This document shows, one piece after another, positions 3,568 to 14,502 of a stretch of DNA of 14,502 bases (within the stretch, counting starts at the first letter, position 1; every line of letters starts with the position of its first letter). This DNA comes from Pseudomonadales bacterium (GTDB taxonomy: Bacteria; Pseudomonadota; Gammaproteobacteria; Steroidobacterales; Steroidobacteraceae). Location of the stretch: assembly GCA_020442965.1 (NCBI GenBank), contig JAGRJB010000085.1, positions 1 to 14,502 on the forward strand, written 5' to 3'. The notes under the pieces were generated by a model. The model made no database searches, was not told the origin of the DNA, and saw only the letters and a list, made by a program, of their open reading frames with translations. A program made the position numbers and the translations under genes.

Positions 3568-4899
3568 ATGAACAGCGCGCCGTCGCGGGCAGCAAGGGTG
3601 CTCACAGTTGGGCTGCTCGCGAGTTTGCTCGGACCTGCGACCGTCGCGGCGGCGGAGCCGTCGCCGCTGGAAGCGGCGCTCACAGCAGTTGATGCCAAAG
3701 TGATCGCCTGGCGGCGCGACCTGCATCAGAACCCGGAGCTGTCCAACCGCGAATTCCGCACGTCCAGACTTGTCGCCGAGCATCTACGCACACTCGGCCT
3801 CAAGGTTCGGACGGGCATCGCACACACCGGCGTCGTGGCGTTGCTCGAGGGCGGCAGGCCCGGGCCAACGATTGCGTTGCGTGCTGATATGGACGCCCTA
3901 CCGGTAACCGAGATGGTAGACGTGCCATTCAAGTCCAAGGCGACAGCTACCTATCGGGGCGAGACGGTGGGGGTGATGCATGCCTGCGGCCATGACTCGC
4001 ATACCGCGATCCTGATGGGTATTGCCGAGGCGTTCGCGCAGCTGCGTCCCGGCTTGCCCGGCAAAGTGCTGTTCGTCTTTCAGCCGGCCGAGGAGGGAGC
4101 TCCCGCCGGTGAACGCGGTGGCGCGAGTCTCATGTTGGAAGAGGGCGTATTCGATCTCGCTACTCCCGAGGCTATCTTCGGTTTGCACGTCATGTCGACG
4201 CTCAACGTGGGCACCATCGGCTACCGTGGCGGACCGCTGATGGCCGGCTCGGATTCCTGGCGCATTCTCGTCAAGGGCAAGCAGACACATGGAGCGCTGC
4301 CCTGGGCTGGTATCGATCCGATCGTCATCAGCGCGCAGATCATCAATGCGTTGCAGACGATCGTTAGTCGTCAGATCGATATCACGGAGATCCCGGCCGT
4401 CGTCACTGTCGGTGCTATCAAGGGCGGCATCCGCAATAATATCGTACCGGACGAAGTGGAGATGATCGGCACCGTTCGTACGTTCGATGCCGCTCAGCGT
4501 CGCGATATCCTCGATCGAATGGCGCGAATAGTGGAAAAGACAGCGGCGGCGAGCGGCACGACGGCCAGTTTCACAGTTGATGCGGATTCGAATCCGGTCG
4601 TGTTGAACGACCGAGCACTGACCGAAGCGGTGGTGCCGAGCTTGCGCAAAGCATCACAGGACGTGCGCACGGTGCCGCTGGTCACGGGCGCGGAAGACTT
4701 CGCGTTTTTCGCCACGAAGGTACCGAGCTTTTTCTTTTTCGTCGGGATCACGCCGCCCGATCAGAATCCGGCCACAGCCGCGTCGAATCACTCGCCGTTG
4801 TTCTATATCGACGAGGCGGGCATACCGATCGGGAGCCGCGCGTTGGCCAACGTGGCGTACGATTATTTGCTAGCTTCCCAAGGCGCGCAGGCTCGCTGA
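3568..4899 (+). CDS. Exported M20-family amidohydrolase/peptidase (hippurate hydrolase-like)
   Basis: Metal-dependent amidohydrolase of 443 residues, probably cleaving N-acyl amino acids or related amides in the periplasm. A Sec-type signal is visible: a basic start, a hydrophobic core at about 11-22 and an AAAE cleavage region near 27-30. The M20D metal-site pattern is complete: HACGHD (Cys140, His142), PAEEG (Glu175/Glu176), GLHV (His207) and NHSP (His408). The RRDLHQNPELS and LRADMDALPV motifs are typical. The dimerisation-domain THGALPWAGIDPI is present. ATG 3568 has an AGAGGAA Shine-Dalgarno seven bases upstream. The gene is divergent from the glycosyltransferase across 126 bases. Its 3' end overlaps the convergent oxidoreductase gene by 30 bases. 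The substrate is unknown. Confidence 0.93.
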   Translation: MNSAPSRAARVLTVGLLASLLGPATVAAAEPSPLEAALTAVDAKVIAWRRDLHQNPELSNREFRTSRLVAEHLRTLGLKVRTGIAHTGVVALLEGGRPGPTIALRADMDALPVTEMVDVPFKSKATATYRGETVGVMHACGHDSHTAILMGIAEAFAQLRPGLPGKVLFVFQPAEEGAPAGERGGASLMLEEGVFDLATPEAIFGLHVMSTLNVGTIGYRGGPLMAGSDSWRILVKGKQTHGALPWAGIDPIVISAQIINALQTIVSRQIDITEIPAVVTVGAIKGGIRNNIVPDEVEMIGTVRTFDAAQRRDILDRMARIVEKTAAASGTTASFTVDADSNPVVLNDRALTEAVVPSLRKASQDVRTVPLVTGAEDFAFFATKVPSFFFFVGITPPDQNPATAASNHSPLFYIDEAGIPIGSRALANVAYDYLLASQGAQAR

Positions 4900-7086
4900 G
4901 ATTGGCAAGCGGCGGATGCGCTGACCGGTCGCGGCAAAGATCGCATTGCAGACCGCGGGCGCAATTGGGGGAGTGCCAGGTTCACCGGCGCCGCCCATCG
5001 GGGCGTTGCTCGATATTATCTGCACGCTGATTGCCGGCATCTCGTTCATCCGGAGCACCGGGTAGGTGTCGAAATTGCCTTGCACCGGCCGGCCATTCTC
5101 CACGGTAATCTGCCCGCTGAGAGCGGCCGACAGACCGTACACGATACCGCTCTCCATCTGTGCGACGACGCCGTCGGGATTGACTGCCCGTCCACAATCG
5201 ATCGCGCACCAGACACGATGCACGCGCACCTGCCTGCCGGTCACGGATACTTCCGCTACCTGCGCGACGATGCTGCCAAAGGACTCGTGCAGGGCGAGGC
5301 CGCGCGAGCGGCCGGCCGGCGCCTCTTTCCCCCAGCTCGCCATGGCGGCTGCGGCATTCAGCACGGCAAGGTGGCGCGGCTTTTCAGTCAGCAGCTTGCG
5401 ACGCAGGGTGAGCGGATCCTGCTGGCCAAGGTGCGCCAGCTCATCGAGTACTGATTCGACCACGAACGCGCCATGTGAATGTCCTACCGAGCGCCACCAC
5501 TGGATCGGAATGGTCGGATTGCCGTCGTCGATATCGACACCGAAGTTTGCGATGCTGTACGGCATGTCCGCCGTGCCTTCGATGGTCGAGGGATCGATGC
5601 CATCCTCTTTGACAGCAAATTTCGCAAACGCCGAAGCTTTGATGACCGGCTGACTAACGATCGATTCGCCCCAGGCAACCGGCATACCTCGAACGTCGAT
5701 TGCTGCGCGCACGCGCGCCATCACGAACGGGCGATACCAAAGCCCGCGCATATCGTCCTCACGCGTCCAGATGGTTTTCACGGGCCGGCCGAGCATCGCC
5801 TGCGCAACCTGCACGCCTTCGAGCACGTAATCGGCGGCAGGATTGCCGCGCCGCCCAAAGCCGCCGCCCAGGAAAGTCGTGTGTAGAGCGACTTGTTCGG
5901 CTGGCAGCCCCAGCATGTTGGCGACCAGATCGCGTTCCATCGACTGCATCTGCGTGCCGACCCAGATCTCGCAGCGATCGGCGTCCACCTTGGCCACACA
6001 ATTGAGCGGCTCCATGCACGCGTGCGCCAGGTAAGGCAGCTCGTACTCGACATCGATGCTGCGTTTGGCGCTTTTGAGTGCTGCCCGAACATCACCGACG
6101 TTTCTGGCGACCTTGCCACCGCGTGCCAGCAGTTGCCGATATTCGACCCGTAAGGCGTCGGTGGAGAAGCCAGCGTTTGGGCTGTCGTTCCAATCGGCCT
6201 GCAGGGCCTCGCGACCTCGCTGGGCCGCCCAGGTGTTGGTGGCGTAGACCGCAACGCCGGTGGGTACCTGTTTTACGTCAACCACGCCCGGCGTGGCGCG
6301 GGCTGCGCGTTCGTCGAACCGAGCGAGCGTCGCACCAATGACGGGCGCCCGTGCAACCACGGCGACCAGCATATCCGGTAGCTTGACGTCACAGCCAAAC
6401 CGCGCTCGTCCATCGACTTTCAGCGGACTATCGAGCCGCCGCTGGTGTTTGCCGATGTAACGAAACGCAGCCGGATCCTTGAGGGTCACGTCAGTTGGTA
6501 CGGCGACAGCCGCGGCGGCGGTCGCGAGGGAGCCATAACTCGCACTGCGCTTGCCATCGGCGCTCAGCACACGGCCGTCGTTAGTGGTCAGGGTCGACAC
6601 ATCGGTTTGCCATTCCCCCGCTGCGGCGGCCAACAGCATGGCGCGCGCCGTGGCACCCGCCTTGCGCATCTGCTCGTACGTGGTATTCGTGCTGCTGCTG
6701 CCGCCCGTGAACTGGGCCGGCAGGTACGGGTGATTGAAGGCCGCATTGACTGGCGCGAATTCGACTGCGACTCGCTGCGGATCGATGTCCAGTTCCTCGG
6801 CGATCGCCATGGCGATCCCCGTATAGACTCCCTGGCCCATCTCCGATTTGCCGATCACTACCGTGACGCTGTCATCCGGGGCGATCCGCAGAAAGGCGTT
6901 TGGCGCGAACGGCCCGCTGGTCGCGCCTGGGGCGCGCACCGGGCCAGGACTGCCGTCATTGCGACGGGCGATCGCAAGGCCTACCACTAGCCCCGCGGAC
7001 ACGACCCCGGCGCCCAGCAGGAAATACCGGCGACTCAGCCCCGCATCCGCACTTGAGTCGTTAGCGTTCAGTGACTTGAGATTCAT
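4870..7086 (-). CDS. Molybdopterin-binding aldehyde/xanthine oxidoreductase large subunit, Tat-exported (IorB-like)
   Basis: Catalytic molybdenum-cofactor subunit of the xanthine dehydrogenase family, most like isoquinoline 1-oxidoreductase beta subunits; relatives hydroxylate N-heterocycles or oxidise aldehydes. From ATG 7086 the protein has 738 residues, a full-length IorB-type chain. A twin-arginine signal [10 protein letters not shown] (about residues 18-27) plus hydrophobic stretch directs export of the folded protein and may stay as an anchor, since no clear AxA site follows. Family motifs include [42 protein letters not shown] and the C-terminal [12 protein letters not shown] with the catalytic Glu near residue 702. 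The frame extends to a TTG at 7140, but the added 18 residues precede the Tat motif unnaturally, so ATG 7086 is preferred. The usual [2Fe-2S] partner subunit is not adjacent. The substrate is unknown. Confidence 0.93.
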
Positions 7087-7180
7087 GATGGTGTTCTCGA
7101 AAGATCCTAGGCCAACGGAGCGCGACGATAGCACGATCAATCTATCGGTCGCCGCTACAGTCCGCTATCCTGCCTGAGCT

Positions 7181-9417: not shown

Positions 9418-11028
9418 CTAGGCTACCTGCTGTCGCAATACGCGCGGCAGCATGATGCGAAAGCGCGTGAATTCGCCCGGCTTGGTCGCTACGCCGACCT
9501 TCCCGCCGAGCGCGTGCACGCGCTCCCGCACCAGATCCATACCAAGTCCCTGAATATGCGACGGTCCGGCCATCGCGGTGCTGAACCCCGGACGAAAAAT
9601 CAGGCTCGCGAGTTTGCGTGGGTCGATACGCTCAGCGACCGCTTCCGTCAGCAGGCCCTGCTCGATGGCCACGGCACGAATCCGGTTGTAGTCGAGGCCG
9701 CGGCCGTCGTCCTGGAACGAAAGGTTGAAGGCGTTACGCTCGTCGGCATCGAATTGCACAACGAACGTGCCAGCCGGCGCTTTGCCGCGGCGTGCGCGCT
9801 CTTGCGGCAACTCGAGACCGTGTAGTACGGCATTGCGCACGAGTTGATTGAGGACGTCGCCTATCACCGATTGAATTTCGTCGGGAACCTCGTCGAGCCC
9901 GATTGCGACGACCGAGACCTCGCGCTCGCTCGCTGCGGCGACTTCCATCGCCAATCGTCGGACGAATTCGCCAAGATCCTCCACGTCGTCCTGCATTGAC
10001 GGCGCCGGCAACAACTGCGTTGCAGCATGTGTCTCCGCGCAGTCCTTAGCGACGATGGGTTCATCGGCCGTCTGTGCGGGAGCAGCGTCACGCCCGAGCG
10101 AATCGCTCAGCCATGCGAGGTGACTGAATAGGTCGTCCAGCTTGGCTGCGAGCGGCAGAAAATCGTTGCCGGTCAGAGTCGGCTTCGCGCTCAGCGACAG
10201 AAGCAGATCTTCGAAGCTGGTCGATTGCTGAACGACCGCGTCGAGCGACTGTGCCGCCGCCCGTTCGCGCAGTGCGACAATCAATTCCTGGATCCGGTTC
10301 AGCTTCTCCCGAAATGCCGGTTCTGCGCGTGCGGGCATGCGCAACATCGCTCTCACTTGCGATGCTTTACTGCTGGCGTCCTGAAGAAACTGGGCGAGCG
10401 CCGTCCCGTCTCGTTTCAGTTGGACCGTGATCGCTCCAACGTCGTCGGCCGGCGCGAGCGCCACGGGCGGTTGTTCCTGCGCTGCGATGGCCTCCGCTGC
10501 GATGGCCGGCGCTATTGTGGCCTCCGTCACTACGGGTAGCGCCTCTGCGTGCTGCGACGCGACTTGCCGTTCCTCGATGATGACGAGTATGCCGGCCATC
10601 GTGCTGTGCGCCGCTATCTTTTCAAAGGCGAAGTCGAGAATACGGCCATGAATGGCGATCGCCGAGAGCGGATTGGTGGCCGGCTCCCCCCGCAGCAGCG
10701 CTTCGAGATAACTAACGGCCTGTAGACGGCGATCGTCTGCGACGTTGCCTCCGAGCAGGCTGGAAAGCGTTGTGCCCGCGACACAATCGCGTCCGAGCAT
10801 GCGGCTGGCGGTCGGTGGGAGCTTGCCGACGACACGTTGTTCACAGTCGATGATGAACGCAGTTTTAGGCTGCGCACCCAGCACGGCATCCAGGCGCATC
10901 TGCGCGTCGAGCGCCTCGCGACGTGAGAAGAGCGATTTGCGGCGTAGTGATCGCGCGTGCAGCATCACGGCAATCACCGTAACGAGCAACACCAGCGCAA
11001 GCCCAACAGCCAGGGCGGAAGATAGCAT
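9418..11028 (-). CDS. Membrane-anchored CheA-like ATPase with a degenerate HPt region
   Basis: Protein of 536 residues, last of a three-gene operon. Layout: one N-terminal membrane span (about 5-23); a PAS-like sensor region (about 45-152, TAFIIDCEQRVVGKL start); an Ala/Pro linker; a helical region (about 197-310) resembling HPt (FREKLNRI...SLDAVVQQ) but lacking the HTLKG-type phosphohistidine; and a C-terminal CheA-class HATPase. The ATP site looks intact: N-box LNQLVRNAVLHGLELP (Asn394/Asn399), DDGRGL (440-445), GFSTA (481-485) and GLGMDLVRERV (from 494). The chain ends straight after the ATPase, so there is no CheW-like domain. ATG 11028 has GGTGAG eight bases upstream, and the gene starts 39 bases after the kinase gene. 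CheA enzymes phosphorylate a His on their own HPt; none is recognisable here. The target is unknown. Confidence 0.85.
   Translation of the reverse strand: MLSSALAVGLALVLLVTVIAVMLHARSLRRKSLFSRREALDAQMRLDAVLGAQPKTAFIIDCEQRVVGKLPPTASRMLGRDCVAGTTLSSLLGGNVADDRRLQAVSYLEALLRGEPATNPLSAIAIHGRILDFAFEKIAAHSTMAGILVIIEERQVASQHAEALPVVTEATIAPAIAAEAIAAQEQPPVALAPADDVGAITVQLKRDGTALAQFLQDASSKASQVRAMLRMPARAEPAFREKLNRIQELIVALRERAAAQSLDAVVQQSTSFEDLLLSLSAKPTLTGNDFLPLAAKLDDLFSHLAWLSDSLGRDAAPAQTADEPIVAKDCAETHAATQLLPAPSMQDDVEDLGEFVRRLAMEVAAASEREVSVVAIGLDEVPDEIQSVIGDVLNQLVRNAVLHGLELPQERARRGKAPAGTFVVQFDADERNAFNLSFQDDGRGLDYNRIRAVAIEQGLLTEAVAERIDPRKLASLIFRPGFSTAMAGPSHIQGLGMDLVRERVHALGGKVGVATKPGEFTRFRIMLPRVLRQQVA
10480..10507 (-). 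repeat. Short tandem duplication in the linker of the CheA-like gene
   Basis: The 13-base string CGCTGCGATGGCC occurs at 10480-10492 and again at 10495-10507, a period of 15 bases that keeps frame. It encodes an Ala/Ile repeat in the low-complexity linker between the PAS-like and HPt-like regions. It is probably a simple slippage product. Confidence 0.5.
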
Positions 11029-11067
11029 GCGGGCATCTCACCGGGCTGGCGCCCGTGGCACCGTGAT

Positions 11068-12504
11068 CTAGTTCACGGCTGCGGCGATGGCGGGTTCATC
11101 GTTGCCTGGAGCTGCAGTATGGATCACAGGATCGAGGATGGATTCGCCCTGCTGCGCTCGATCGAGTGCCTCGAGTACCGCGTTGGCGGATTCAAAGCGC
11201 TCGTCACGATCCTTCGCCATCAGACGATCCAAAAGCCATTGCCAATGAGCGAATTCGATCGGCAACAGCGGTACCGGCGCATCGACGTGCTGTCGCAACA
11301 CGTCCATGGCGGATGCACCCAGATGCGGCTTCTTGCCCGCTAACATCTCATAGAAAATGATACCTAGACTGTACAGATCCGTGCGTGCGTCGAGATCGTT
11401 GCCTTGTGCCTGTTCGGGACTCATGTAGTAAGGTGAGCCGCGTAGTACACCCGTGCGAGTGGTGCCGTCGCCGGCCAGCAGATTGCGAGCCAGACCGAAG
11501 TCGATCAGGACGACGCTACCATCTTCGCGCAGCATGACATTGGGTGGCTTGAGATCACGATGCACGATTCCTGCGCTGTGCACCACATGGAGTGCGGCGG
11601 CGATGTCGCGTACGAATGAGAGCGCCTCGTTGAGCGCTATGGGATGCTGCAACCGCGCCTTGAGATCGCCGCAGGGGTAATACTCCATCGCGAGATACTC
11701 GCGCCCGTCGTGCGAGCCGTAGTCAAAGATCTGCACCACCGCCGTATCATGTACGGTGGCGAGCGCGTGGTACTCGCGTTCGAACACCGCGCGCTCGACC
11801 GCGATCGATTCGCCATCTTCCGATTCGCCCGATTCATCGCGGGCGCGTTTGCTGACCTTCAGCGCGACTTTGCGCTCCAGCGCCACGCTCATCGCGAGAT
11901 ACACGGACGCTGCTTCCGATTCGCCCAGTGGCTGCAGGATCGTATATCCCGGCACGAGATCTGCATCCGCCGCGGGCTTCGTGGCGGGTGGCGCACTCGC
12001 CGCCGCCGCAGGGCCCGGCGTTGCAACTGGGACGGCGCTCGGTAGGGCGGCGGCCTTGCTGCCAGGTTGCTGAGCACGGCGTTCTTCACGATCCTGTCGT
12101 TCGCGCTGAATCGCCCGCAGCGCGAGCCGGACCGCGTTCTGCAATCGAAAGGGTGTTAGTAAACGCTTCGGTAGGTAATCAAGCACGCCGAGCCGGATGG
12201 CACGCACCGCCGTTAGCTCGCTCCCACCATCGGCGAGTACTATGATCTGCGGAAAGGCGGGCTGGTGACGCAATTTCCGCAACCAGTCGAGACCGCCAGA
12301 TTCGGTATCCTCGGGCGTCTCGCCGAATTTGAGACAAACCAGCGCGAGCTCGAAGTCCCGCACCGTAATGCCGGCGCGCAGCCGCCGCAGCTCGCCCAAA
12401 TCCATGACGCGCAGCTCGGCGGCTGGCCAGCCAGCCTCGAGCGAATGTCGTAGCCACGCGCCAAACTTCGCGTCATCCACGGCGATGAGAAAGCGATCAG
12501 CCAT
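11068..12504 (-). CDS. Ser/Thr protein kinase with an N-terminal pseudo-receiver domain
   Basis: Cytoplasmic protein of 478 residues with no membrane span. Residues about 4-130 form a receiver-like fold: the acidic pair Asp10-Asp11 and Lys113 (DYLPKR) are kept, but the phospho-acceptor position after strand three is Cys57 (LALVCLKF) and the switch Thr/Ser is Ala91, so Asp phosphorylation is unlikely. An Ala/Pro linker (about 131-182) leads to a Hanks-type kinase at about 186-448. It has Lys216 (VALKV), a helix-C Glu in FEREYH, HRDLKPPN (Asp317, Asn322), DFG (335-337), SPE (362-364) and Asp376 in RTDLYSLG. These predict an active kinase. The glycine-rich loop is degenerate (GESEAASV instead of GxGxxGxV). 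The gene starts nine bases after the TonB-domain gene and ends 39 bases before the CheA-like gene. The substrates are unknown; the two operon partners are candidates. Confidence 0.92.
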   Translation of the reverse strand: MADRFLIAVDDAKFGAWLRHSLEAGWPAAELRVMDLGELRRLRAGITVRDFELALVCLKFGETPEDTESGGLDWLRKLRHQPAFPQIIVLADGGSELTAVRAIRLGVLDYLPKRLLTPFRLQNAVRLALRAIQRERQDREERRAQQPGSKAAALPSAVPVATPGPAAAASAPPATKPAADADLVPGYTILQPLGESEAASVYLAMSVALERKVALKVSKRARDESGESEDGESIAVERAVFEREYHALATVHDTAVVQIFDYGSHDGREYLAMEYYPCGDLKARLQHPIALNEALSFVRDIAAALHVVHSAGIVHRDLKPPNVMLREDGSVVLIDFGLARNLLAGDGTTRTGVLRGSPYYMSPEQAQGNDLDARTDLYSLGIIFYEMLAGKKPHLGASAMDVLRQHVDAPVPLLPIEFAHWQWLLDRLMAKDRDERFESANAVLEALDRAQQGESILDPVIHTAAPGNDEPAIAAAVN

Positions 12505-12513
12505 GTGCGCTGA

Positions 12514-14502
12514 CTACTCGTCTGTCGTATTGAATCGAATGCGCAGCCGTGCGCGCTGTTCGACGGCGGTACCGTTCTTCATCACAGGCTTGTAGCGCCA
12601 GCGGCGTACGGCGTCGAGGGCGGAGTCCTCAAAAATGCCCTTTGGTTCGGCGCCGACGATCTGCGCGTCCGCGACCGACCCGTCGGTGCCAACGGTGAAT
12701 TCCACGTCCACCCAACCCTCGCTGCCGCGCGTCCGCGCGGAGATCGGATAGCGGGGTTGTACGAATCGCACATTTTCAAGCGTATTGGCGGCGACGACGG
12801 GCGACCCAGGCGCGCCGGACGCCGCCGCCGAGCCACCGGCGGGCTCTCGGGCGGGATCGGGTACCGGGGCGCCTGTGGGGGTAGCTGTCGGGGCGGCCGA
12901 AGCGTTGGGGGCCGCAGCGGGAGCCCGGGCGAGCGCGACGGCAAGATCTCGTGTTACGGCCGCGGTCTCCGGCCCGTTGTAGCCGATCGTCCGGACCTCG
13001 CCAAGCCAGCGTTCGGCGCCGGCCAGATCATTGCGGCCGATCGAAATACGCGCCTCCTTCAACATCTCGCTGCCGAGGTTCTGCCGCGCCTGAGCGGTCG
13101 CCGGGTGGCTCGGATCCGCCTCGACGAGTGCGCGGAAGTACTGCCGGGCATTGTCGTCGGGCGGTTCGAGCAAGCGGTTGGTTGCGATCGCCTGGCGGAA
13201 CGACTGGGTGAGCGCGGTGATCCTGTCGGCTTTGTTAGTGATCTCCGCCTGTTGCAACGTGCGTCGGACCTCCGCCAACGCGGCGCGCGAGGCGCGGGCC
13301 TCCTCGGCGTTGGCCAGCCAGCGCTCGGCATCGGCGAGATCACCGCGAGCCGCGGCCACGCTCGCGCGGTCGAGCATGGCGGTCTGCAGTGCACGGGTGG
13401 CATTCGCGAGGCCCGGTTCGTTGGGTGAGACACGTCGCGCGGCTTCGATGTAGAAGCGCGCGTTGTCTTGCGCCGGGTCGATCAGACTGCCAGTTGCGAG
13501 GCGTTGACTGGCAAGGCGCAAGAACCCGACGGCCTGTTCGTTGGCGCTGCCGCGGGCGTCCGATTGCGTCTGCGCGAGCGCAGTTCGCTCGCGTTCCTTG
13601 TTGACTTGCACCGCGAGAAACGCCGCGCGGCTGCTGCCGGGGGCCAGCAAGATGGCTGCATCGATTTGCGCTTGCGCCTCGTCGACCTGTTCCGCGAGCA
13701 GCGCAGCCTCCGCGGCGGACAGCAGCTTGTCGACGACGCGCTCGATTCCCGCCCGCGCTTTCGCATTGTTAGGATCGAGCGCGAGTATCGCGCGATAGCG
13801 ATCGGCGGCACCCGAGCCGGCGGGCGAAAGATATTCGCCCTTGACGTAAGCCGCGTCGCCGGCTGCCAGCAGCCCGGCGATTCGATTGGCTTCGATCGCG
13901 GCTCGATCGACGGGAGCTTCCTGCACCTTCTTGACTTCCGGCGCGGGCGGCGAGCGCAGCGCAAGCCAGCCGCCGGCCACTGCTAACAAGATCAACACGA
14001 CGCCGGCACCGATCAAGACGCTATTTGACGGTCGGCCGATCGTGCTACTTGCGTTGGTTGGCGCAGTCGCAGGCGCAGGCGCATCTGCGAGTTCCGCATG
14101 CTCGACGTCGTGGCGGCGCAGTGCGGCTTCCAGAAACAGCCGGACGCGTTCCTGCGATACGGGTCGATGCAGAAACCGATAGACCAGATTGCTGGTAATG
14201 TGCCGCGACAGTGCCGCCTGGTCTTCCGGTCCGCCGGCAACGACCAGCACGAGATCGGGAAATTGACTCTTGATGCGTTCAACGAATACATCGACCGGCT
14301 CGCGTACCGCGGCGCTATCAATCAGGACGGCGCCCACTCGTTTTTCAATGAGTTCTGTAGCCAAGTCGATATCGGCGCGAACCGTAACGACCTCGTGCTC
14401 GTGCGCGGTGGCGCGGCGCACGGTCGCGAGCAACTCGTTGTTGCTGGACAAAACCGCCACCGCGCCGTTCGGCGCGGTGGCGATCGCGGTGGTCGATGTG
14501 GC
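12514..14502 (-). CDS. Pseudo-receiver / transmembrane / helical-repeat / TonB C-terminal protein, 5' end probably outside the window
   Basis: First visible gene of the operon. The frame is open to the right edge; GTG 14460 gives 648 residues, but it falls inside the first strand of the N-terminal domain, so the true start is probably beyond the window. Numbering from that GTG: a receiver-like domain (about 1-117) with Asp48 kept (AVLIDS) but no acidic pair (AVLSSN) and His98-Arg99 where Lys-Pro is usual; a linker; a membrane span (147-169); three related helical units (about 195-510); a Pro/Ala/Thr-rich linker (about 512-556); and a TonB C-terminal domain (about 561-648) with PRYPISAR, GWVDVEFTVGTDGSV and AVRRWRYKP. 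The predicted topology is cytoplasmic N-terminus and periplasmic repeats and TonB domain. A classic TonB has a short cytoplasmic N-terminus and a long Pro-rich spacer, so ordinary iron-uptake energising is doubtful. Confidence 0.88.
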   Translation of the reverse strand, partial: ATSTTAIATAPNGAVAVLSSNNELLATVRRATAHEHEVVTVRADIDLATELIEKRVGAVLIDSAAVREPVDVFVERIKSQFPDLVLVVAGGPEDQAALSRHITSNLVYRFLHRPVSQERVRLFLEAALRRHDVEHAELADAPAPATAPTNASSTIGRPSNSVLIGAGVVLILLAVAGGWLALRSPPAPEVKKVQEAPVDRAAIEANRIAGLLAAGDAAYVKGEYLSPAGSGAADRYRAILALDPNNAKARAGIERVVDKLLSAAEAALLAEQVDEAQAQIDAAILLAPGSSRAAFLAVQVNKERERTALAQTQSDARGSANEQAVGFLRLASQRLATGSLIDPAQDNARFYIEAARRVSPNEPGLANATRALQTAMLDRASVAAARGDLADAERWLANAEEARASRAALAEVRRTLQQAEITNKADRITALTQSFRQAIATNRLLEPPDDNARQYFRALVEADPSHPATAQARQNLGSEMLKEARISIGRNDLAGAERWLGEVRTIGYNGPETAAVTRDLAVALARAPAAAPNASAAPTATPTGAPVPDPAREPAGGSAAASGAPGSPVVAANTLENVRFVQPRYPISARTRGSEGWVDVEFTVGTDGSVADAQIVGAEPKGIFEDSALDAVRRWRYKPVMKNGTAVEQRARLRIRFNTTDE
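12931..13878 (-). repeat. Three degenerate ~100-residue protein repeats in the TonB-domain protein
   Basis: Units lie at about residues 195-290 (13591-13878), 311-405 (13246-13530) and 417-510 (12931-13212). Units 2 and 3 share an L-x-x-P-x-x-DNAR-x-Y-x-x-A start, an SPNEP/DPSHP turn, an L-x-x-x-ML-x-x-A helix and a DLA-x-AERWL helix. DNAR and AERWL recur 105 and 104 residues apart. Unit 1 is weaker, with SPAGSGAADRY and DEAQAQI at matching places. The units look like tandem TPR-like helical bundles. Confidence 0.7.

What the first reader, a model, noticed from the sequence alone, without database searches (positions are those of the whole stretch)
9418..14502. Three-gene operon built from phosphorelay parts with their phosphosites lost
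The three minus-strand genes are spaced by 9 and 39 bases. They encode a degenerate receiver fused through a membrane span to repeats and a TonB C-terminal domain, a degenerate receiver fused to an apparently active Ser/Thr kinase, and a CheA-like ATPase without a visible phosphohistidine. Two receiver-like domains and one HPt-like domain each miss key residues, while both ATP-using active sites look kept. This suggests a signalling unit where receiver and HPt folds serve as docking modules and output is by Ser/Thr phosphorylation or ATP-driven conformation. It is visible as architecture; the mechanism is inference.
Basis: partly seen in the sequence, partly recalled or inferred. Interest (0 to 1): 0.78.

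Follow-up and report, generated by a model that had tools for sequence, protein, structure and literature searches.

The report
His-less CheA operon with Ser/Thr kinase
A bacterial signalling operon whose relatives pass phosphate from histidine to aspartate has lost that relay and carries a serine/threonine kinase instead, and related genomes preserve what look like intermediate stages of the swap.

Summary
The operon is real: three minus-strand genes, 9 and 39 bases apart, in an incomplete MAG whose named kin are Steroidobacteraceae. C is a membrane CheA-like protein with Val251 where its HPt phospho-His should be and an intact ATP site. B is a receiver-Ser/Thr kinase with Cys57 in place of the phospho-Asp and an intact kinase. 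A is a receiver fold, membrane span, helical repeats and TonB domain.

Of 168 C proteins examined, 123 keep HxxKG; 118 of these adjoin CheY and/or CheX and the other five are cut by contig ends. Forty-five lack it: 41 adjoin B, none adjoins CheY, two adjoin a CheX-like gene. Of 13 relatives from other gammaproteobacterial families, 12 are His+ C-CheY-CheX, so the loss is derived. Apparent intermediates exist: B beside C(His)-CheY-CheX, A-B without C, and outside the order an intact receiver-kinase directly after C(His)-CheY-CheX.

Best reading: the output of a phosphorelay moved to a Ser/Thr kinase and the relay chemistry was then lost, leaving C as a probable ATP-binding dock for B. The series is well supported but rests on few (2-4) independent losses; the mechanism is inferred. 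New variant of a known kind.

The parts
12514..14502 (-). Gene A: receiver fold - membrane span - helical repeats - TonB C-terminal domain; 5' end cut by the contig end (three residues missing)
   Evidence: ORF; TonB_C; AF2 model; P0121
14086..14463 (-). A, receiver fold (residues 14-139); pseudo-receiver that keeps the beta-3 Asp
14317..14319 (-). A, codon of Asp62, the phospho-Asp position, kept
   Evidence: invariant in 38 of 38 rows; position
13963..14007 (-). A, hydrophobic helix, probable membrane span (residues 166-180)
   Evidence: helix in the AF2 model, low confidence there; reading of the sequence
12913..13905 (-). A, helical repeats (residues 200-530), presumably periplasmic
   Evidence: AF2 helices; Pfam TPR only at E 1.5
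12529..12759 (-). A, TonB C-terminal domain (residues 582-658)
   Evidence: PF03544, 78.8 bits; fold match to TonB domains
11068..12504 (-). Gene B: aspartate-less receiver fused to a Ser/Thr kinase
   Evidence: ORF; Pkinase 141.9 bits, Response_reg 18.1 bits below its cut-off
12100..12495 (-). B, pseudo-receiver (about residues 4-135)
   Evidence: weak Response_reg match at 70-124; alignment with receiver-kinases and CheY
12334..12336 (-). B, codon of Cys57 in the phospho-Asp column
11140..11946 (-). B, Ser/Thr kinase domain (about residues 187-455) with Lys216, Asp317 and Asp335
9418..11028 (-). Gene C: membrane helix - PAS-like domain - HPt-like bundle without phospho-His - CheA-type ATPase
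10951..11025 (-). C, N-terminal hydrophobic helix, probable membrane span (residues 2-26)
   Evidence: AF2 helix; reading of the sequence
10567..10893 (-). C, PAS-like alpha/beta domain (about residues 46-154)
   Evidence: AF2 secondary structure; no family match
10087..10407 (-). C, HPt-like helical bundle (residues 208-314)
   Evidence: alignment A1; AF2; relatives pass Pfam Hpt
10276..10278 (-). C, codon of Val251 in the phospho-His column
9439..9975 (-). C, CheA-type ATPase (residues 352-530), N, G1, F and G2 boxes kept

Best explanation
The operon descends from a phosphorelay whose output was handed to a Ser/Thr kinase and whose relay chemistry was then lost. The ancestral module is a membrane CheA-like kinase with an HPt His (C), a CheY and the phosphatase CheX, in Steroidobacteraceae usually with A. 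A receiver-Ser/Thr kinase (B) joined it, B's receiver lost its Asp, and in the branch that holds the window C lost the HPt His and the operon lost CheY and CheX. SHOWN by sequence: these states in living genomes, the direction of the His loss, and the kept catalytic residues. INFERRED: C still binds ATP and, as a membrane-anchored scaffold, docks B's aspartate-less receiver on its HPt/ATPase surface, so that the conformation of C sets B's kinase activity; A, with a cytoplasmic receiver fold and a probably periplasmic repeat and TonB part, is B's envelope-side partner or substrate.
For: His status and neighbours are almost perfectly linked in 168 C proteins. In relatives from other families 12 of 13 C genes are His+ with CheY and CheX, and rooting on them makes the loss derived, with at least four changes. 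Receiver-kinases with the Asp stand beside His+ C-CheY-CheX in L281 (all five receiver residues) and in L192, the most basal C-linked B. B with a changed Asp stands with His+ C-CheY-CheX in 12 loci (L074 is cut before CheY/CheX). ATP-site residues of C are 98-100% conserved in 119 near relatives that, but for two, lack the His. Purifying selection on all three genes in same-genus triads. Precedent for a His-less kinase acting as receiver dock: DivL (discussion section read).
Against: Only two His losses are independent on well supported branches, and over random pairings B differs in about one of the two pairs, so the linkage cannot reach significance once kinship is counted. At least five B genes have no C beside them, so C is dispensable there. 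F or G2 motifs are decayed in several His-less C proteins of other branches (L045, L050, L169-L171, L180, L182, L183). No binding or activity was tested. A keeps its Asp, which pure docking does not explain. G001 has a CheY-CheX pair at a contig end although only a His-less C was found in it.
Confidence: 0.5

Rival explanations
1. C is a fading remnant: once B took over the output, C lost its role and is on the way to deletion; B, with A where A is present, signals without it.
For: Five B genes with readable downstream sequence have no C beside them and nest among A-B-C* and B-C* operons (in a sixth, L195, the contig ends 424 bases after B). F/G2 boxes decay in several His-less C proteins. dN/dS of C is higher in same-genus triads (0.21-0.25) than in His+ pairs (0.08-0.11), and 0.64 in the pair L169/L170.
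Against: C is under purifying selection in the window's genus, and its ATP-site residues are 98-100% conserved in 119 near relatives. It adjoins B in 41 of 45 His-less cases.
Confidence: 0.2
2. The relay is still alive in trans: C's ATPase phosphorylates a separate HPt or another protein's His, or A's Asp62 is phosphorylated by another donor.
For: The ATP site is kept and A's Asp62 is invariant in 38 of 38 rows.
Against: CheY and CheX are absent beside the His-less C genes (0 of 45 and 2 of 45), and 13 of 18 genomes in which only His-less C was found have no CheX match. A lacks the acidic pair, the Ser/Thr and, in the window, the Lys.
Confidence: 0.14
3. C's ATPase has itself become a protein Ser/Thr kinase or an ATP-dependent inhibitor of another protein, as in other members of the fold.
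Confidence: 0.06

Closest known systems
CheA-CheY-CheX modules (chemosensory-type phosphorelay)
   Same: CheA-type ATPase and an HPt-like bundle in one protein; close relatives of C adjoin CheY and CheX
   Different: The window lacks the phospho-His, CheY, CheX and a CheW-like P5 domain; it has a membrane helix and a PAS-like domain; the partner is a Ser/Thr kinase
DivL of Caulobacter, a pseudo-histidine kinase (PMC4211667; outline and discussion section read)
   Same: Histidine-kinase architecture without the His that keeps dimer and receiver docking as its function
   Different: DivL has a DHp (HisKA-type) core with Tyr and binds a phosphorylated true receiver; C has an HPt bundle with Val and its partner receiver has no Asp and is fused to a Ser/Thr kinase
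Pseudo-receivers and aspartate-less receivers (PMC12632262 and PMC4395418; passages read)
   Same: B lacks the Asp, A lacks other active-site residues; both meet the review's definition of a pseudo-receiver
   Different: Here the pseudo-receiver belongs to a kinase and its operon partner has lost the matching His
CheA proteins with His-less Hpt copies, such as ChpA or CheA3 (PMC10782961; passages read)
   Same: Hpt domains without the conserved His in CheA-type proteins
   Different: Those proteins keep at least one working Hpt; C has a single HPt-like domain and it is His-less
Plant ethylene receptors with degenerate kinases signalling through CTR1 (recalled; only titles and abstract starts seen)
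   Same: A receptor descended from a histidine kinase that works through a Ser/Thr kinase
   Different: Other kingdom and kinase type, no HPt and no receiver-kinase fusion; analogy, not kinship

Membership tests
CheA histidine kinase (C) | P1/HPt phospho-His | tested here: not met
   Val251 in the His column; 118 of 120 nearest proteins lack it
CheA histidine kinase (C) | P4-type ATPase | tested here: met
CheA histidine kinase (C) | P5/CheW-like domain | tested here: not met
   Pfam up to E 10 gives HATPase_c only; CheW matches of this genome lie on contig C10 only
HPt domain (C, 208-314) | helical bundle homologous to Hpt | tested here: met
   alignment with relatives that pass PF01627; AF2 helices
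HPt domain (C, 208-314) | phospho-His with following K-G | tested here: not met
   window motif ELIVALRER
[quoted passage not shown]
   fold; acidic pair, Ser/Thr and Lys changed, Asp kept
Aspartate-less receiver, A | no phospho-Asp | tested here: not met
   D62 in 38 of 38 rows
Aspartate-less receiver, B | receiver without the phospho-Asp | tested here: met
   Cys57; 119 of 120 nearest lack Asp there; receiver homology by weak Pfam match and alignment, no fold model of B made
Hanks-type Ser/Thr kinase (B) | catalytic Lys, HRD Asp, DFG Asp | tested here: met
TonB C-terminal domain (A) | TonB_C sequence and fold | tested here: met
   78.8 bits; fold matches
DivL-like receiver dock (C) | binds a receiver without phosphotransfer | not testable with these tools
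   needs binding assays

The most novel reading that the evidence does not exclude
Steroidobacteraceae and their kin preserve a stepwise replacement of His-Asp phosphorelay by Ser/Thr phosphorylation inside one operon family: intact relay; relay plus true receiver-kinase; relay plus aspartate-less receiver-kinase; His-less CheA-like protein plus kinase; and finally kinase without CheA-like protein, with the relay folds kept as non-phosphorylated docking parts.
Probability: 0.55. Interest if true: 0.8.

Novelty: new variant of a known kind. Interest (0 to 1): 0.62.

Why it matters
How bacterial pseudo-receivers are switched is described as a mystery in a 2025 review (PMC12632262, passages). Here a pseudo-receiver, an aspartate-less receiver-kinase and a His-less CheA-like protein sit in one operon, and living relatives keep the chemistry, so ancestral-type and derived-type modules can be compared part by part. 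If the reading holds, it is a bacterial case of a pathway that changed its phosphorylation chemistry while keeping its parts.

Tried and rejected
Relocated phospho-His: 80 of the 120 nearest C proteins have a His three residues after the lost one, but the others have Asn (21), Arg (15), Lys (3) or Gln (1) there, and the window has Arg. Rejected as a conserved relocated site.

Relocated phospho-Asp in B: in some other branches an acidic residue lies two residues after the lost Asp. In the 120 nearest proteins that column is mainly Lys 37, Ala 34, Glu 17, and the window has Lys. Rejected for the window's group, open elsewhere.

Two receivers without Asp: rejected, A keeps D62. In the wider set of A rows, 76 of 100 have Asp in that exact column; the 24 others all belong to His+ systems, and several printed ones show it one column further.

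Chance or assembly error: rejected; the same losses recur in many other contigs.

One or several His losses: not resolved. Holding the two large His-less groups together is not rejected (p-AU 0.40; 0.475).

Statistics: the Fisher tests give very small p values but ignore kinship. Independent pairs number two on starred branches, so I do not rest on them.

Literature: searches listed no paper on this operon; searches found no paper for their term sets. Only listings were seen except for the four papers named. The library is open-access only.

Rows dropped: HPt matches with under 50 aligned columns; tree rows with under 180 filled columns; near-identical rows thinned; duplicate loci L199-L201. 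Not all profile matches were fetched: end with 'more matches are not listed', and I fetched 170 stretches, chosen.

Full report
WHAT IS THERE. The window is the whole contig C6 of G000, an incomplete MAG (67.6% complete, 653 contigs). G000 is unnamed; close named proteins are labelled Steroidobacteraceae, as are several loci. Three minus-strand genes, A (12514-14502), B (11068-12504) and C (9418-11028), are spaced by 9 and 39 bases. A is cut by the contig end; the identical protein P0121 shows only three residues missing.

PROTEIN B. A degenerate receiver (18.1 bits, cut-off 30.2) is fused to a Ser/Thr kinase (141.9 bits). In the 120 nearest proteins the phospho-Asp column holds Ala 74, Ser 24, Thr 11, Gly 7, Cys 2, Val 1, Asp 1. 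The receiver's Lys (119 of 120) and one acidic residue (120 of 120) stay. The kinase Lys is kept in 120 of 120, and the HRD and DFG Asp in 119 of 119 aligned.

NEIGHBOURHOODS. A profile of the HPt region (A1) matched 149 of 217 genomes of the family and 135 of 396 of the order, of which 13 lie outside the family, six of them with strong matches. I fetched surroundings and read 171 sources including the window, which gave 168 C proteins. Counted on either strand within 3 kb: 123 have His and KG. Of these, 118 adjoin CheY and/or CheX; in the five others the contig ends within 412 bases downstream of C. Forty-five lack His-KG: 41 adjoin B, 0 CheY, 2 a CheX-like gene (L175, L177, with no ATPase match in frame). 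Of the four without a counted B, L162 is cut by a contig end and shows a partial B (106 bits); L156, L175 and L177 show none. Thirteen His+ C genes have B within 3 kb: twelve with A, and L192, where B is on the opposite strand. L174 has a His in the column but no KG and counts as His-less.

DIRECTION. A class-wide search matched 12 of 369 genomes at E 1e-8, two of them G000 and G006. The 13 C genes fetched from nine of the other ten genomes are His+ with CheY and CheX beside them in 12 cases; L290 lacks all three. In L281 the order is C-CheY-CheX-receiver-kinase, and that receiver keeps both acidic residues, Asp, Ser and Lys. Rooted on these rows, His loss is derived, with at least four changes: the window's group, the g7/g3 group, L156 and L290; the first two may be one event (p-AU 0.475). 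None of the L156 and L290 surroundings shows CheY, CheX or B.

GENE B HISTORY. In a quick kinase tree of 110 rows, 60 B proteins group together (support 92; 95 without L192) within a wider gammaproteobacterial receiver-kinase family; 54 of the 60 have a C within 6 kb. Six do not. In one of these, L195, the contig ends 424 bases after B, so five are informative. The genomes of these six each have one A1 match elsewhere, at coordinates that coincide with His+ loci. L192, the most basal, keeps the Asp. Of 17 receiver-kinases outside this group that I aligned, 10 show Asp in that column. So the Asp was probably lost within the C-linked group and before the His, because the 12 His+ operons with A and B already lack it.

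GENOME-LEVEL CHECK. CheX matched 138 of 217 family genomes. In 18 genomes every C that I examined was His-less. Thirteen of them have no CheX match: G000, G023, G029, G031, G117, G118, G129, G167, G233, G235, G236, G238, G239. Five do: G164 and G166, where it stands beside L177 and L175; G234 and G237, with weak matches on other contigs; and G001, with a strong CheY-CheX pair whose contig ends just beyond CheY (L293), so that a His+ C may be off its edge. Many of these genomes are incomplete.

SELECTION. dN/dS among three same-genus triads: A 0.28-0.34, B 0.18-0.24, C 0.21-0.25. C in four His+ pairs: 0.08-0.11. Other His-less pairs give C 0.12-0.26, except L169/L170 at 0.64. Frames run from stop to stop and may include some non-coding sequence. 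Decayed F or G2 boxes occur in L045, L050, L169, L170, L171, L180, L182 and L183, not in the window.

HOW IT PROBABLY WORKS. Shown: lost acceptors in C and B, kept ATP and kinase sites, gene association, direction of change. From established knowledge: receivers dock on HPt or DHp surfaces, and a His-less kinase can serve as a receiver-binding switch (DivL, discussion section). Inferred: membrane, PAS-like and ATP states of C are read by B's receiver through docking and set the Ser/Thr kinase; A is an envelope-spanning partner. Loss of C in some lineages is the best argument for the remnant rival.

WHAT IS KNOWN. The CheA survey (PMC10782961, passages) reports His-less Hpt copies inside multi-Hpt CheA proteins and P1, P3, P4 and P5 in all CheA; C has a single HPt-like domain without His and no detected P5, so I do not file it as CheA. 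The pseudo-receiver review (PMC12632262, passages) gives missing His in 90 of 10,312 Hpt domains and missing Asp in 3,111 of 152,269 receivers. No paper on this operon was listed.

Noticed in passing
L281:4924-9354: Outside the order, C(His)-CheY-CheX is followed directly by a receiver-Ser/Thr kinase whose receiver keeps all five active-site residues: a possible true response regulator with Ser/Thr kinase output.
   Followed up: partly
L282:3206-8148: A gene that by my reading holds a PP2C-like stretch followed by a kinase (kinase match 120 bits) stands divergently beside C(His)-CheY-CheX in another family; the PP2C reading was not tested with a family search.
   Followed up: partly
L175:4187-5500 and L177:601-2000 (approximate): Short His-less HPt-region proteins without an ATPase match in frame that overlap or adjoin a CheX-like frame.
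   Followed up: no
L290:5794-7776: A single C relative in another family without His and without CheY, CheX or B nearby, in a genome that also holds a His+ module (L289).
   Followed up: partly
window:2293-3441 and 4870-7140: The glycosyltransferase and the molybdopterin-binding oxidoreductase of the window have look-alikes close to B in L198 and L202 (glycosyltransferase) and downstream of B in L194 (oxidoreductase), seen; this may mark an old shared neighbourhood.
   Followed up: no
window:1072-2250: The WD40 ORF as listed overlaps the end of the CobW-type gene by 140 bases; its true start is probably further downstream.
   Followed up: no
G000:C198:96-461: A PP2C-type phosphatase stretch (38.3 bits) exists elsewhere in the window's genome, a possible counterpart of Ser/Thr kinases.
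   Followed up: no
L219: A receiver-kinase contig titled as a Klebsiella pneumoniae MAG; judged by its gammaproteobacterial kin in the tree it may be mislabelled or mis-binned.
   Followed up: no
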